DNA from: Bacillota bacterium
Lineage (GTDB): Bacteria; Eremiobacterota; SpSt-956; JAKJGF01
Length of the DNA: 5,795 nucleotides
Direction of reading: 5' to 3'
NCBI GenBank assembly: GCA_029555925.1
Contig: JAKPQU010000580.1
Coordinates: forward strand, 1 to 5,795
The notes below the pieces were generated by a model. That model did no database searches, had not been told where the DNA came from, and saw nothing but the letters and a program-made list of their open reading frames with translations. The position numbers and the translations under genes are program-made. Positions 661 through 5,752 of the stretch are shown here, in pieces (position 1 is the stretch's first letter; each line of letters opens with the position of its first letter).

Positions 661-700
661 AAATATACTCTGGTGAGTATAGATAGTACATAACTGCTCT

Positions 701-721
701 CGTAACGCGTAAAGCGTGACG
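701..721. repeat. Heptamer array, three units
   Basis: Three consecutive 7-mers, CGTAACG, CGTAAAG and CGTGACG, match the consensus CGTNACG that recurs in the other large gaps of the window. The first unit is the reverse complement of CGTTACG, the unit at 5410-5430. Confidence 0.55.
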
Positions 722-735
722 GGAGAAAAACCTTT

Positions 736-920: not shown

Positions 921-1007
921 ATGAACCTGGAAGTAGTAATCTGCAAAAGAGGAACCACTTTAATCCTGAGTAAAAATCAGGAAAATTATAATAAAGGAGA
1001 TGGGTAA
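921..1007 (+). CDS. Small ORF of 28 codons coupled to the next gene
   Basis: ATG at 921 follows a strong AAGGAG site (907-912) at eight-base spacing and reads 28 codons (MNLEVVICKR..., ending NKGDG) to TAA at 1005-1007. The stop is one base before the ATG at 1009 of the exported enzyme, and that gene's SD site lies inside the last codons of this ORF. This is the arrangement expected for translational coupling. The peptide has one Cys, no membrane segment and no motif I recognise. It could be a real small protein, a leader peptide controlling translation of the downstream gene, or the remnant of a decayed gene. The SD, spacing and stop/start arrangement are visible; function is unknown. Confidence 0.5.
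   Translation: MNLEVVICKRGTTLILSKNQENYNKGDG
994..999 (+). promoter_or_regulatory. Ribosome binding site deciding the start at 1009
   Basis: AAGGAG ends directly against an in-frame ATG at 1000, leaving no room for initiation there, but sits nine bases before ATG at 1009. The start at 1009 is therefore preferred. It also gives a cleaner signal peptide beginning MKK. Confidence 0.65.
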
Positions 1008-1008
1008 A

Positions 1009-1878
1009 ATGAAAAAAATATGTTTCTTGACTATTTGTATGGTAATCTTAACTTCCATTATTGTTCAGGCCAGGCCTATCTTAGTATTGACTACCGACTT
1101 CGGACTTAACAATGAAGCAGTGGGGCTCTGTCATGGAGCAATACTGGCAATAAATCCGGATATAGAAGTAGTCGATCTCTGCCATAATGTTAAAGCTTTT
1201 GATGTAAAACAGGCATCACTCATACTTAAAGGGACTGAATGCTTTCCAAAGGGAACCGTTTTTGTATCTGTAATAGATCCAGGAGTTGGAACAGATAGAG
1301 GAGCAATAGCTATAAAAACAAAAAAAGGATTATATTACATAGCTCCCAATAACGGACTTCTGACATATGTTATAGAGGAACAGGGGCTTGAAGCGGTCTA
1401 CGAACTGGATACAAAAAAAGTTAACCCTCAGTGGAGCAGAGGAACATTTGACGGCCGCGATCTTTTCAGCCCTGCAGGAGCAATCCTTGCCACAAACAAC
1501 GGCAAAATGGACTCAATAGGACATGAAATAAAACAGGAAGCTATAGTTATGTTTATGGTGTTACAGGCAAAAATTCATGAAGGTACCATATCAGGAGTAT
1601 ATGTTCAGGAAGATGAGCCTTTCGGGAATGCATGGACAAATATCACAGAAGAAGATCTGAAGAAAATCTCAGTAAAACCCGGTGATAAACTCCACGTCAC
1701 TGCAGCAGGTCTTGAAATAGATCTACCTCTCGTAATTACATTCGGAGAAGTAAAAAAAGGGGAACCTCTTGCCTATATGAACAGTGAAGGAACACTTGCT
1801 TTTGCAATAAATCAGGGAAATTTTACCCTTACCTATAATTTGAAAGAAGGCATGGAAATAAAAGTGAAAAAACAGTGA
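1009..1878 (+). CDS. Exported SAM hydroxide adenosyltransferase family protein (DUF62)
   Basis: This 289-residue protein belongs to the family that converts S-adenosylmethionine and water to adenosine and methionine, related to fluorinase and chlorinase. Visible family landmarks are LTTDFG (27-32, N-terminal Asp30), DPGVGTDR (90-97), APNNGLL (112-118), TFDGRDLF (146-153), FGN..TNI (205-212) and a C-terminal NQGN. The hydrolase catalytic triad is Asp-Arg-His (from memory Asp68, Arg75 and His127 in the Pyrococcus enzyme). Asp90 and Arg97 are present with the right seven-residue spacing, but the His position is Asp148 (codon GAC at 1450-1452). An N-terminal MKK, a hydrophobic stretch and VQA before Arg22 look like a Sec signal peptide. 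Cytosolic homologues begin almost directly at the TTDFG strand, so this is an added export signal, odd for an enzyme using a cytoplasmic cofactor. Start 1009 is chosen by SD spacing over ATG at 1000. It is probably coupled to the small ORF upstream. Family confidence is high; activity and substrate are uncertain. Confidence 0.92.
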   Translation: MKKICFLTICMVILTSIIVQARPILVLTTDFGLNNEAVGLCHGAILAINPDIEVVDLCHNVKAFDVKQASLILKGTECFPKGTVFVSVIDPGVGTDRGAIAIKTKKGLYYIAPNNGLLTYVIEEQGLEAVYELDTKKVNPQWSRGTFDGRDLFSPAGAILATNNGKMDSIGHEIKQEAIVMFMVLQAKIHEGTISGVYVQEDEPFGNAWTNITEEDLKKISVKPGDKLHVTAAGLEIDLPLVITFGEVKKGEPLAYMNSEGTLAFAINQGNFTLTYNLKEGMEIKVKKQ

Positions 1879-1993: not shown

Positions 1994-3538
1994 ATGATCG
2001 AAGTAGAAGTATTAAACTCTTCCATATCTGAAATAGAAGCAGATGCAGTACTTACAGGCGTTTTCGAAGATGCTTGTACAGTAGAAAGGCTCTGTGGAAG
2101 AGATGAAAAATTTAAATATATGGTAAAAGACCTTATTGAAGAAGGTGAAATCAACGGTAAACTTGCCGGAACAACGCTGGTTCACAGCCGCGGAGAGATT
2201 AAACCGCGAAGAATATTAATCGTTGGCCTGGGGAAAAAAGAGAATCTTTCTCTGGACAGGTTACGTGGTATGGCAGCAGTGTCAGGAAGGTTGCTTCGTG
2301 ATATTCAATGTCAGAAAATAGGCATACATCTTGGTTTTTTACCATCTGGATTTCGCTATAAAGATACTGCAATGGCAGTTATAGAAGGATTTTTCCTGGG
2401 GCAGTACAGTTTTACAAAATACAGGCATGAAGAGAAAAAACCGGAGGTTACGAAATTTGGTATCTATTTTCCTGAAGAAATAAAATTTGATACAGATTTA
2501 ATCTCTCACGCCATAAGAACAGGTGCATTTGTAGCAAAAGCCACCAATTTGAGCCGCGATCTATGCAATGAACCGGCAAATGTACTTACACCTGTAAGAC
2601 TCGGTAAAATTGCAGAGAAACTGGCAGAAGAATACGGATTAAAATCACATATTATTGATGAAAAAGAAATGCAGTCTCTGAATATGAATCTTATGCTTGC
2701 AGTTTCAAGAGGCAGTAAAGAGGTTCCTCGTCTCATAGTCCTTGAATACCGGGGGGCAGGAGAAGGGGAACCTGTATATGGATTACTCGGAAAAGGAGTA
2801 ACCTTTGACAGCGGAGGAGTATCACTGAAGGATCAGGCTGCCATGAATCATATGCACCTGGATAAAACAGCCGGTGCCGTAGTCATAGGCATTTTAGCAG
2901 CTCTTTCGTCTCTTAAAGTAAAGATAAACCTTACAGGGGTCATACCTGCCGTTGAAAATATGCCAGGTGGCAATGCCTATAAACCCGGAGATATTATTAA
3001 AGCCATGTCAGGTAAAACAGTAGAAATAACAAATACCGATGCAGAAGGAAGACTGATTATGGCAGACAGTCTCACCTATATGCAGCAGATACTGAAGATC
3101 GATAATATTATAGATTTCGCCACACTTACAGGAGGCTCAAAAACTGCCCTGGGAACAGATATTATCCCGGTATTTTCTAAAGATAAAGACATGGTAAACC
3201 TGTTCAAGGAATCCTGCTGGCACAGTGGCGAAGTATGCTGGGAAATGCCTCTTTACAGAAACTATTTGAAACTTCTTAAAAGCCATGTTGCAGATATAAA
3301 GAATATGGTAAAAGATTCTCCTTCTACTCTGCTGGGAGCTTTATTTCTAGGAGAATTTATAGACAATCATACAAAGTGGATGCATTTAGATATTGGAGGT
3401 CATGAATTCAGAGAAGAAGAATTTTCCTATCAGGCCTATGGTGCTACTGCACTTGGCATGAGATCCCTTATAAGATACTATCTCCATCTGGCAGGTGAAG
3501 ATATAGGCACAGATATGGAGGACTGGAAAATTTTATAG
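1994..3538 (+). CDS. pepA: Leucyl aminopeptidase, peptidase family M17
   Basis: This cytosolic two-zinc aminopeptidase removes N-terminal residues from peptides and typically works as a hexamer. Residues 1 to about 165 form the M17 N-terminal domain (LIVGLGKKENL at 75-85), and about 175 to 500 the catalytic domain. CNEPANVLTP (191-200) is the conserved linker motif. Metal and catalytic residues fall at a constant offset of three from E. coli PepA numbering: K267, D272 (GKGVTFDSGG), K279, D290, D349 and E351 (NTDAEGRL) and R353. All are present, so activity is expected. After D290 the sequence is DKTAGAVV where many members have DMGGAAAV. The length, 514 residues, is near that of E. coli PepA (503). 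ATG 1994 is the only sensible start: an in-frame TGA at 1982 closes the frame upstream. AAAGGA (1973-1978) is 15 bases away, further than usual. It lies 115 bp after the exported enzyme gene and may share its transcript. Confidence 0.95.
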   Translation: MIEVEVLNSSISEIEADAVLTGVFEDACTVERLCGRDEKFKYMVKDLIEEGEINGKLAGTTLVHSRGEIKPRRILIVGLGKKENLSLDRLRGMAAVSGRLLRDIQCQKIGIHLGFLPSGFRYKDTAMAVIEGFFLGQYSFTKYRHEEKKPEVTKFGIYFPEEIKFDTDLISHAIRTGAFVAKATNLSRDLCNEPANVLTPVRLGKIAEKLAEEYGLKSHIIDEKEMQSLNMNLMLAVSRGSKEVPRLIVLEYRGAGEGEPVYGLLGKGVTFDSGGVSLKDQAAMNHMHLDKTAGAVVIGILAALSSLKVKINLTGVIPAVENMPGGNAYKPGDIIKAMSGKTVEITNTDAEGRLIMADSLTYMQQILKIDNIIDFATLTGGSKTALGTDIIPVFSKDKDMVNLFKESCWHSGEVCWEMPLYRNYLKLLKSHVADIKNMVKDSPSTLLGALFLGEFIDNHTKWMHLDIGGHEFREEEFSYQAYGATALGMRSLIRYYLHLAGEDIGTDMEDWKIL

Positions 3539-3622
3539 GTGAGAAATGAGTCGTGTTTCGTAGTACGTGATATGCAATCGAAATATGTAATTTCACAACT
3601 CACGGCTCACGACTCACTACAT
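3539..3622. repeat. Heptamer-phased array filling the pepA to FlhA-like gap
   Basis: The 84 bases directly after the pepA stop divide into twelve 7-mers. The left ones begin GTGA or similar (GTGAGAA, ATGAGTC, GTGATAT). The right part carries TCAC at seven-base steps: ATTTCAC, AACTCAC, GGCTCAC, GACTCAC (3590-3617). The two halves are in opposite orientation, and TGAGTCGTG (3547-3555) pairs perfectly with CACGACTCA (3608-3616). The array ends two bases before the next ATG. No SD site is visible in it. Confidence 0.6.
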
Positions 3623-3624
3623 TT

Positions 3625-5322
3625 ATGAATTTCAATGATAACTTAAAAAAACAACTCCATAATTTATTTTCCAGACATACAGAGTCATTAATTTCAGAAG
3701 AAATTAAATCTCATATAAAGCTCATTATTTACCTCTTAAATTCCCTGCCTCAGGAAGAGATATCTGTGGCAGGGAATTTATATAATATTGTGTCTCTTAA
3801 AGAATGGAAAAAAATCATATATAATACCGAAGGGTTTACCTTCAAATTAAGAGCCTGTTCCGGCGGTAAAATAACATGCCAGATATCGCCAGATATGGAT
3901 TTAACTATAGAAGAAAAACCTGATAAACACAGAATAATATTAAAAGTTCCTGCCACAGGAAAAATCTCCATTTTTTTATCACCTGTAGAATCTGCCGGAG
4001 AATCTGCCGGCATTGTTTTATTATTCCCTTCTTCTTTTCTGGCATGTTTATATTTAAAGAAAGGAATTACAGTTTTCTGGGGTTCCATTCATGGTATATC
4101 CCATAAAATCCTTCTCTCACTCCATGTAACCTCTTCAACCAATCTTATTTTGTTACGAAAATCTAAAACGTTAAAAGATTTAACCTCTTTTTTATCTGCC
4201 ATATATCACAGAGAAGATAAAATGATTGATAATCCAGAAAGTAACAGTGCTCTACTGGAAAAAGATCCCCAAAAAGATGAAAATCTTTCCGAACAAACTA
4301 TTACGATAAACCAGGTAGATGCCATATCTGTCGAAGTCGGCTTAAATCTTCTTACTCTTATAGATCCCAGGCTGGATCCTCCGCCTCTTCTCAATGCTAT
4401 GACACAGTATAGAAAGAGCTTTTATGAAATATTCGGTTTTAATCTCCCGGGAGTCAGGTTCAGGGATAACCTTACCCTGAAGCATAATCAGTATATAATT
4501 AAAATTAAAGATAATACTGTTGCCACAGGAGAAATAGTAAAGGATCGTTTACTTGCTCTCGGGCTGGAAAATGATCTGACAGAACTTACAGGACCTGCCT
4601 ATGGGCCGGATGAAGTATATGGCTTAAAAGGCATATGGATTGAAAAATCTTTTCGCGAGATAGCAGAAAGACAGGGGTGTCTTATTATGGAAGCCGGGGA
4701 AGTTATATGCACCCATATACAGGAAATATTCTCTAACAATCTGGAGAAATTTATGATACTCCAGGTGACGGAATTATTACTGGAAAATTTTATGACTGTA
4801 GATCCTGAGAAAGTCAATGAAATAAAAGACAATCTCGGTCTGGCAAAAATAAACAGGATATTTAAATACATGGTCAGTGAATGGCTTCCCCTTGCAGACC
4901 ATGAATTTATCATTCAGAATATATATGAAATCTCTCAAAAAGAAAAACATCCGGGGAAAATTTACGAAGAACTGCGCAAACGATTTCTGCCTTACATATT
5001 ACATAAAACAAATCTGGATATAAGTGACTGTTTTACCGTATCAAATAAAACTGAAGAAACTCTTCTTAAATTCTCAAAAAAAATAAAAGCAGGTTACAGT
5101 ATAAATATGCCTTTTTCTGTAAAAGAACGCTTTTTTAAAGCTGCAATAAAGCTTCTCTACAGAGATCATATTAAAAGCAGAGCAGCGCTCTTCTGTTCAT
5201 CACCGGTAAGACCATTATTGCTACAGATTTTAAGAGAAAATTTTCCTGAAATAAAAATTTTTTCTTATGATGAAATACCTGACACGTTTCCGTTAAAATT
5301 TCGTGGAGAATTTAATATATAG
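3625..5322 (+). CDS. Orphan FlhA/SctV cytoplasmic-domain protein with a new N-terminal region
   Basis: Residues from about 231 to 565 match the cytoplasmic domain of the FHIPEP family (flagellar FlhA, type III secretion SctV), which normally forms a nonameric ring that docks substrates and chaperones. Landmarks in order are AISVEVGLNLLTLIDP (233-248), VRFRDNLTLKHNQYIIKI (277-294) with ATGEI (300-304), VYGLKGIWIE (331-340), VICTHIQEI (360-368), LPLADHEFIIQNI (421-433), and the C-terminal SPVRPLLLQILRENFP (526-541) with FSYDEIP (546-552). About 335 residues is close to the whole FlhA C-domain. The usual ~350-residue N-terminal half with eight membrane helices and the FHIPEP loop is absent. Residues 1-200 are instead a soluble-looking, unrecognised region (helical 1-40, then strand-rich), followed by a charged linker (about 196-228). 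A 12-bp tandem repeat encodes ESAG twice (122-129). ATG 3625 is the first start after an in-frame TGA at 3568, yet no SD site precedes it. No other secretion or flagellar gene is nearby. Family membership of the C-terminal part is confident; the role is unknown. Confidence 0.9.
   Translation: MNFNDNLKKQLHNLFSRHTESLISEEIKSHIKLIIYLLNSLPQEEISVAGNLYNIVSLKEWKKIIYNTEGFTFKLRACSGGKITCQISPDMDLTIEEKPDKHRIILKVPATGKISIFLSPVESAGESAGIVLLFPSSFLACLYLKKGITVFWGSIHGISHKILLSLHVTSSTNLILLRKSKTLKDLTSFLSAIYHREDKMIDNPESNSALLEKDPQKDENLSEQTITINQVDAISVEVGLNLLTLIDPRLDPPPLLNAMTQYRKSFYEIFGFNLPGVRFRDNLTLKHNQYIIKIKDNTVATGEIVKDRLLALGLENDLTELTGPAYGPDEVYGLKGIWIEKSFREIAERQGCLIMEAGEVICTHIQEIFSNNLEKFMILQVTELLLENFMTVDPEKVNEIKDNLGLAKINRIFKYMVSEWLPLADHEFIIQNIYEISQKEKHPGKIYEELRKRFLPYILHKTNLDISDCFTVSNKTEETLLKFSKKIKAGYSINMPFSVKERFFKAAIKLLYRDHIKSRAALFCSSPVRPLLLQILRENFPEIKIFSYDEIPDTFPLKFRGEFNI
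3988..4011 (+). repeat. 12-bp tandem repeat inside the FlhA-like gene
   Basis: GAATCTGCCGGA at 3988-3999 is followed by GAATCTGCCGGC at 4000-4011. The pair adds the in-frame duplication ESAG-ESAG (residues 122-129) in the unrecognised N-terminal region. It probably lies in a surface loop between predicted strands, and it keeps the frame. Confidence 0.75.
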
Positions 5323-5359: not shown

Positions 5360-5440
5360 ATGACCGATTCGGCCACAACGAAGTATGAGAATTTGTTCTT
5401 CCCGTAACGCGTTACGCGTTACGCGTTACGATTCTCATAT
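5360..5440. repeat. Hairpin element, copy 2
   Basis: The opening ATGACCG, CGGCCACAAC and TATGAGAAT (5384-5392) match copy 1 at 589-621 with few substitutions. TATGAGAAT pairs perfectly with ATTCTCATA (5431-5439). Copy 1 has an A-T pair where this copy has G-C, so the stem is kept by a compensatory change. Here the loop holds a heptamer palindrome instead of the small inner stem of copy 1. It lies 37 bases downstream of the FlhA-like stop codon. Confidence 0.6.
5403..5430. repeat. Four-unit heptamer array and palindrome
   Basis: CGTAACG is followed by three exact CGTTACG units. Because CGTAACG is the reverse complement of CGTTACG, the array has 10-bp inverted arms (5403-5412 with 5421-5430) around an eight-base loop. 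This is the cleanest heptamer array of the window, and it sits exactly between the stem arms of hairpin element copy 2. Confidence 0.75.
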
Positions 5441-5442
5441 AA

Positions 5443-5672
5443 AATTGCTTTAATTAAACCAAATAATTCAAATAATAGGTAAATACCGTCCGCCTGTCTG
5501 ATGCTCCTCCGAAAAAAATCTAAACTGCAACGTTTATAACAGTTACAGCTTATACCAAATTGCTTTAATCAAACTGAACAATTTGAATAACAGGTAAATA
5601 CTGTCTGCCTGCCTGATGTTCCTCCGAAAAAAATCTAAACTGGAACGTTTATAACAGTTACAGCTTATATCA
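5443..5672. repeat. 115-bp tandem direct duplication
   Basis: Unit A (5443-5557) and unit B (5558-5672) both begin AATTGCTTTAAT and align without gaps over 115 bases with 13 differences, 12 of them transitions. Both keep TCCTCCG followed by seven A (for example 5621-5633), and both keep AACTG and CAGTT, which could pair across a 12-base spacer. Unit A abuts the right arm of hairpin element copy 2. Translation of the minus strand gives similar short peptides in both units, but without start codons. Confidence 0.85.
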
Positions 5673-5752
5673 TGCTACTTTACATTATAATTCAATAAAA
5701 TATACCTGTGTTGCCGTGATATTTTTTTCTCCGGAACACCAGGCAGGCAGAC
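5603..5752. repeat. 32-bp inverted repeat linking the duplication to the window end
   Basis: The 32 bases at 5603-5634 (start GTCTGCCTGCCTG, end A7-T) are the reverse complement of 5721-5752 (start A-T7-C, end AGGCAGGCAGAC) at 28 of 32 positions. The mismatches are a three-base block and one single base. The arms flank 86 bases. The inverted arm matches unit B better than unit A. It may be a partial inverted third copy of the repeat unit or the end of a small element with inverted ends. Confidence 0.7.

What the first reader, a model, noticed from the sequence alone, without database searches (positions are those of the whole stretch)
3625..5322. Membrane-less FlhA/SctV cytoplasmic ring domain fused to an unknown N-terminal region
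The export-gate cytoplasmic domain is complete (about residues 231-565), but the family-defining transmembrane half and FHIPEP loop are replaced by about 200 soluble-looking residues. FlhA-C normally works only when tethered to the export gate. A soluble version outside any flagellar or secretion operon suggests a new use of the ring: a chaperone or substrate hub, a decoy regulator of a secretion system elsewhere in the genome, or part of an unrelated assembly. The long intact reading frame with well-kept C-terminal motifs argues against a pseudogene.
Basis: partly seen in the sequence, partly recalled or inferred. Interest (0 to 1): 0.82.

Follow-up and report, generated by a model that had tools for sequence, protein, structure and literature searches.

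The report
Membrane-less flagellar export-ring protein fusion
An uncultured bacterium carries a real, conserved gene in which the cytoplasmic ring domain of a flagellar export gate has lost its membrane half and gained a new soluble domain, probably turning a fixed export part into a free docking hub.

Summary
ORF 3625-5322 (565 aa) carries a complete FlhA-type cytoplasmic domain (residues about 226-556; Pfam FHIPEP 179 bits) behind about 200 residues that are not a membrane half: no transmembrane-grade stretch and no match to a FlhA membrane-half profile (best -1.0 bits of 7 members; 32 of 32 ordinary FlhAs left out in turn score at least 173.9). Eight proteins on different contigs share the domain, seven complete and one a fragment, so this is not a recent truncation. 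They form one clade, about 4.3 changes per site from 32 ordinary FlhAs. The N-region is predicted as an alpha-plus-beta-meander domain of unassigned fold. The neighbouring aminopeptidase points to Candidatus Eremiobacterota. The genome is not held, so flagella or a full FlhA in the host are unknown. Constraint has moved: D1, best kept in FlhA, is relaxed; D4, normally least kept, is protected. An Armatimonadota genome has another membrane-less FlhA-C behind an antitoxin-like domain, beside a normal FlhA. Best reading: a soluble docking hub made from FlhA-C. The function is inferred.

The parts
3625..5322 (+). 565-aa ORF: N-region plus FlhA-type cytoplasmic domain, no membrane half
3625..3783 (+). 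residues 1-53: predicted N-terminal helices (3-17, 21-28, 31-39), low confidence
   Evidence: N-region model, 10-residue blocks at pLDDT 46-62
3784..4218 (+). residues 54-198: predicted meander of antiparallel strands followed by a helix at 186-197; no confident fold match
   Evidence: (blocks of residues 61-170 at pLDDT 74-87 except 59 for 121-130)
4219..4299 (+). residues 199-225: variable linker (2 of 21 aligned residues identical to P0008)
4300..5292 (+). residues 226-556: FlhA-C domains D1 (226-306, 355-376), D2 (307-354), D3 (377-456), D4 (457-556); boundaries transferred from recalled Salmonella numbering
5293..5319 (+). residues 557-565: family-specific tail with F-x-GEF-x-I invariant in the 8 members (P0004 has one residue more after it)

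Best explanation
The gene encodes a soluble partner-docking protein derived from the flagellar export-gate protein FlhA. Shown: the cytoplasmic domain is complete and homologous, the membrane half is absent, and a conserved N-region stands in its place in a small deep clade. Inferred: the C-domain still binds a protein ligand (an export chaperone with its substrate, or a descendant of one) in the cleft between D2 and D4, and oligomerises, probably as a ring, through D3 and D4. The N-domain replaces the membrane tether as the part that places or reads out the ring. Free from the export gate, it would act as a cytosolic hub or sensor, as a paralogue beside an export system or after such a system was lost.
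For: Complete FlhA-C homology. No TM-grade stretch in 8 of 8 members, one of them a fragment. N-region unrelated to the membrane half: at most -1.0 bits in 7 of 7 N-regions, hhalign probability 0.2%, against 173.9 bits (a 143-residue fragment) and at least 346.7 for the other 31 FlhAs left out in turn. As a further control, in 80 of 80 ordinary loci the frame with the C-domain also carries the membrane half. Fusion conserved on different contigs. Constraint shift: scaled divergence of D4 is 0.97-1.04 in the family against 1.02-1.72 in 36 disjoint FlhA pairs (mean 1.47), and of D1 0.99-1.01 against 0.40-1.02 (mean 0.64); in relative identity 0 of 1914 ordinary pairs reach the family's D4 value. 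Published work puts chaperone binding in the SD2-SD4 cleft and stalk or YscX-tail binding in the SD4-SD4 cleft, needs SD3 and SD4 for the ring, and reports concentration-dependent nonamers of the soluble domain (passages of PMC7584215, and PMC9163089). Dimple positions D456, L461, V487 keep their residue in 8 of 8 and T490 in 7 of 8; F459 is Y in 8 of 8. A second membrane-less FlhA-C with another N-domain exists in a genome that also has a 723-aa FlhA.
Against: No host genome, so no partner or export system is shown. Only 34 of 55 strongly conserved FlhA columns are kept; D3, part of the ring interface, keeps 5 of 16, mostly by conservative swaps. By commonest residue the dimple is kept in only 4 of 9 sites, no better than background, and P0008 has C for T490. 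D2 is not unusually protected: its value lies inside the ordinary 5-95% range at deep divergence and, apart from one pair above it, at shallow divergence, and 30% of ordinary pairs reach it. A flat divergence profile is also what partly relaxed selection would give. The shift rests on few members and essentially one deep branch. The full-length model was poor (pLDDT 43.7), so there is no ring model.
Confidence: 0.48

Rival explanations
1. Split export gate: the host's FlhA is divided into a separately encoded membrane half and this cytoplasmic half, rejoined in trans by the N-domain, within a working flagellar or type III system.
For: C-domain complete and under constraint; no full-length FlhA could be shown in the host.
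Against: No split FlhA with two intact halves was established in the sampled phyla, though the match lists were cut: partial pieces looked at were contig ends, G364 reads as a frameshift, and G314 has a lone membrane-half fragment without a C-domain nearby. The long stem and relaxed D1 are not expected of a gate still under full export duty.
Confidence: 0.18
2. Regulator: the N-domain binds or senses something else (DNA, a small molecule, another protein) and the FlhA-C part reads free export chaperones, as a decoy or feedback regulator of an export system elsewhere in the genome.
For: The Armatimonadota protein in L090 has a Phd/YefM antitoxin-like N-domain (28.7 bits, just under the cut-off of 29.8) before FlhA-C, in a genome with a 723-aa FlhA.
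Against: The window's N-region has no convincing match to a DNA-binding family: HicB reached E 0.0028 in the better of 2 of 7 N-regions and 0.0091 and 0.04 in two of the full proteins, the latter below cut-off. The L090 protein has itself changed 5 of 9 dimple sites.
Confidence: 0.2
3. Slowly decaying relic of a lost flagellar system, fused by chance to an upstream gene.
For: Flattened domain constraint; no Shine-Dalgarno-like sequence before the start.
Against: Open frames in 7 complete members down to 49% identity; N-region 35% and C-domain 63% identical between the window and P0008.
Confidence: 0.1

Closest known systems
FlhA (flagellar export gate), Pfam PF00771, NCBIfam TIGR01398
   Same: Homologous four-subdomain cytoplasmic domain; positions G368, R391, D456, L461 and V487 kept in 8 of 8; best PDB hit is FlhA 3mix.
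   Different: No membrane half; a new N-domain; far below the equivalog cut-off; no flagellar neighbours in the window; constraint shifted from D1 to D4.
SctV (injectisome export gate; CdsV, YscV, MxiA, InvA)
   Same: Same cytoplasmic domain by sequence.
   Different: Scores lower than FlhA (101.6 against 178.8 bits); no membrane half. No known SctV was put in the tree.
Phd/YefM-FlhA-C protein of an Armatimonadota genome (L090:7632-9014)
   Same: Intact membrane-less FlhA-C behind a soluble N-domain (best 19-residue mean 1.34).
   Different: Unrelated N-domain; the protein scores only 35.7 bits to the window family profile and 223 to the FlhA-C profile, which suggests a separate origin (inference).

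Membership tests
FlhA/SctV (FHIPEP) family | Homologous cytoplasmic domain D1-D4 | tested here: met
   Pfam 179 bits against cut-off 29.1; PDB FlhA-C hits to E 2.7e-28
FlhA/SctV (FHIPEP) family | N-terminal membrane half with several helices and the FHIPEP loop (recalled definition) | tested here: not met
   No TM-grade stretch; at most -1.0 bits to a membrane-half profile of a kind that finds 32 of 32 left-out FlhAs
FlhA/SctV (FHIPEP) family | Full-length equivalog score (TIGR01398 at least 772.1, TIGR01399 at least 692.25) | tested here: not met
   178.8 and 101.6 bits
FlhA/SctV (FHIPEP) family | Encoded with flagellar or injectisome genes | tested here: inconclusive
   None in 5.8 kb; larger context not held
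FlhA/SctV (FHIPEP) family | Nonameric ring | not testable with these tools
   No usable full-length model; complexes are not predicted by the tools at hand
FlhA/SctV (FHIPEP) family | Chaperone-binding dimple (438, 440, 442, 456, 459, 461, 482, 487, 490 of Salmonella FlhA; positions from PMC10965912) | tested here: inconclusive
   8 of 9 sites hold a residue also seen in 25 of the 32 ordinary FlhAs, 4 of 9 the commonest one
Lipocalin/FABP/LolA-like meander barrels (for the N-region) | Matching fold | tested here: inconclusive

The most novel reading that the evidence does not exclude
FlhA-C has repeatedly been cut loose from the export gate and reused as a soluble, probably ring-forming ligand-docking module: once with a new alpha/beta domain in an Eremiobacterota-like lineage, and once with an antitoxin-type domain in Armatimonadota. 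It would sense export chaperones or a new cargo with no role in translocation.
Probability: 0.3. Interest if true: 0.75.

Novelty: new variant of a known kind. Interest (0 to 1): 0.55.

Why it matters
As far as I know (recalled; the listings showed nothing else), FlhA-C and SctV-C occur only as parts of a membrane export gate. A conserved natural version without the membrane half shows which parts of the ring are useful on their own, and gives a soluble system for asking what the D2/D4 cleft and the ring do apart from translocation. If the host has a flagellum, it may be a new feedback layer; if it has none, it is exaptation of a nanomachine part.

Tried and rejected
Own-genome search: no genome held. 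Attempts to reach the host's phylum through loci at hand failed: phylum of G006 (148 genomes sampled, no M17 match at E 1e-90; one search places G006's FlhA with Ignavibacteria loci) and phylum of G012 (45 genomes, best M17 identity 40%).

Short FlhA-C or membrane-half frames that run into a contig end: G181:C74, G274:C175, G541:C162, G183:C135 and C115, G327:C121, G277:C107; G342:C182's frame runs into the start of the stretch fetched, which is the start of the contig. G506:C88 is FlhA in several broken frames near a contig end. G364:C348 is two overlapping frames of one gene, read as a frameshift. Further partial matches (among them G163, G182, G251, G260, G253, G269, G401) were not followed up. 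The match lists were cut, so no rate of membrane-less FlhA-C in Armatimonadota can be given. In one search, 18 of 61 genomes matched, all in frames of 681-755 aa, 23 of 64 matched, 21 of them in frames of 681 aa or more. The N-region profile A2 found nothing in 291 Armatimonadota genomes, with no positive control in the set.

The N-region gave nothing firm in Pfam, NCBIfam, PDB sequence, PDB fold or viral fold searches. Absence of the Salmonella linker residues E351, W354, D356 was considered as evidence of lost gating and dropped, because they are not conserved in the 25 ordinary FlhAs aligned, and the linker alignment itself differs. An earlier idea that D2 is specially protected was dropped. 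Literature searches for membrane-less FlhA: nothing in the titles and abstract starts listed describes one (listings only; one search returned no paper; the library lacks most subscription papers).

Full report
What is there. The ORF at 3625-5322 encodes 565 aa. Its C-terminal part, about residues 226-556, is a complete FlhA-type cytoplasmic domain: Pfam FHIPEP 179 bits, NCBIfam FlhA 178.8 against SctV 101.6 bits, and solved FlhA cytoplasmic domains as best PDB matches. The first about 200 residues are different. They have no transmembrane-grade stretch (8 of 8 members at most 1.62, 38 of 38 ordinary FlhAs at least 2.73). They do not match a profile of FlhA membrane halves (best -1.0 bits of 7, hhalign probability 0.2%). 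The same kind of profile, with one sequence left out each time, finds 32 of 32 ordinary FlhAs, the lowest at 173.9 bits for a 143-residue fragment and the next at 346.7 for P0045, itself a fast-evolving FlhA with an end branch of 3.17. In 80 of 80 loci from the genome scan the C-domain frame also carries the membrane half.

A real family. Two protein searches of 5.8 billion sequences return 8 members of this type, counting the window's own protein (each scored only the about 8000 candidates sharing most words, so more distant members may be missed). Seven are complete and one, P0007, is a fragment that starts inside the N-region. Identity to the window is 78-90% for P0002-P0007 and 49% for P0008 in the search table (51% in the alignment). 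N-region and C-domain are both conserved: from the window, 72-85% and 84-93% to the close members, 35% and 63% to P0008, with the linker at 17% (P0007 left out of that count). In a tree of 40 cytoplasmic domains the 8 form one side of a branch with 100/100 support; the branch that separates them is 3.55 plus 0.71 changes per column on the two sides of a midpoint root, about 4.3. No known SctV was put in that tree, and P0008 has an unusual letter make-up, so the place of the clade among FlhAs is open.

Host. The aminopeptidase at 1994-3538 is 95% identical to a protein named from a Candidatus Eremiobacterota bacterium, 75% to one from Candidatus Eremiobacteraeota, and 67% to one from candidate division CSSED10-310 (names as the sources give them). 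The host is therefore most likely an Eremiobacterota-type uncultured bacterium; the class is not settled. A cultured member of that phylum, Vulcanimicrobium alpinus, showed no flagella and lacks a flagellin gene (passages of PMC9758169); its genome has 68.4% G+C (same passages) against 37.2% for the window, so this says little here.

N-region. Folded alone with 7 sequences it gave a usable model (mean pLDDT 70.5, pTM 0.70): weak helices first, then a long run of strands, then a helix. Foldseek and VIA found no match above what unrelated models give. Its fold is best called unassigned. The full-length model was too poor to use.

Where selection acts. Among ordinary FlhAs, D1 is the slowest subdomain and D4 the fastest. 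In this family the two are about equal. At deep divergence (three family pairs, all with P0008) the scaled D4 value is 0.97-1.04 against a mean of 1.48 over 1974 ordinary pairs, and D1 is 0.99-1.01 against 0.62; at shallow divergence, in five family pairs, D4 is 0.88-1.16 against 1.58 and D1 0.79-1.32 against 0.44 over 343 ordinary pairs. In 36 disjoint ordinary pairs D4 spans 1.02-1.72 and D1 0.40-1.02, so the family sits at the edge of both ranges. D2 is the slowest subdomain of the family at deep divergence (0.71-0.83) but lies within the ordinary range (5-95%: 0.71-1.04) and is not slow at shallow divergence (0.61-1.41); D3 is rather fast (1.11-1.21) at deep divergence. Published structures place chaperones in the cleft between D2 and D4, and the stalk protein CdsO or the YscX tail between neighbouring D4 domains (passages of PMC7584215 and PMC9163089). 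My reading is that duties tied to D1 (linker, membrane side, FliJ-contact residues) have been relaxed and partner binding through D4 kept or gained. Partly relaxed selection would also flatten the profile, which is the main weakness.

Conserved sites. Of 55 columns at least 85% conserved in ordinary FlhAs, the family consensus keeps 34: D1 19 of 23, D2 5 of 10, D3 5 of 16, D4 5 of 6. D1 against D3 differs with Fisher p 0.002. The known chaperone dimple (positions from PMC10965912, first of eight parts of its text read) holds a residue also seen in ordinary FlhAs in 8 of 9 sites but the commonest residue in only 4 of 9.

An independent case. In Armatimonadota, genome G216 has an intact 460-aa FlhA-C preceded by a Phd/YefM-like domain (just under the Pfam cut-off), with no membrane half, inside its contig, and also a 723-aa FlhA. 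Five of its nine dimple sites are changed. The other short frames that I checked were contig ends, broken frames or, in G314, a lone membrane-half fragment; some were not checked. Membrane-less FlhA-C is therefore uncommon in what I saw but not unique to the window's clade.

Verdict. The functional claim is inference: a soluble docking hub made from FlhA-C is the most economical reading, at about even odds.

Noticed in passing
L090:7632-9014 (-), genome G216, Armatimonadota: Intact 460-aa membrane-less FlhA-C behind a Phd/YefM antitoxin-like domain, between two metallo-beta-lactamase-fold genes, in a genome with a normal 723-aa FlhA.
   Followed up: partly
L111:4999-6279 (+), genome G314, Armatimonadota: A 427-aa frame in a 3.1-Mb contig that holds only the start of a FlhA membrane half (184 bits) and no FlhA-C in the 11 kb around it; perhaps a relic.
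   Followed up: partly
window 5434-5663 and 5721-5752: A 115-bp unit repeated head to tail at 87% identity, with a 32-nt stretch of it repeated in inverted orientation at 5721-5752, downstream of the ORF.
   Followed up: no
window 699-726, 1942-1969, 5401-5428, and about 3598-3619: Dispersed intergenic repeats of the CGTAACGCGTTACG kind; a CTCACGGCTCACGACTCAC stretch lies directly before the fusion's start codon, where no Shine-Dalgarno-like sequence is seen.
   Followed up: no
window 921-1007: A short ORF with a purine-rich sequence before it overlaps the start region of the SAM hydroxide adenosyltransferase gene (read by eye), a possible leader peptide; no Rfam family reaches its gathering score in the window.
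   Followed up: no
window 1000-1878: SAM hydroxide adenosyltransferase with what looks like an N-terminal signal peptide (read by eye), unexpected for an enzyme of a cytosolic substrate.
   Followed up: no
L092, genome G364: FlhA gene in two overlapping frames, probably a frameshift (sequencing error or real).
   Followed up: partly
Armatimonadota genomes: A second class of full-length FHIPEP proteins scoring about 315-475 bits, in some genomes beside a high-scoring FlhA, perhaps SctV-like.
   Followed up: no
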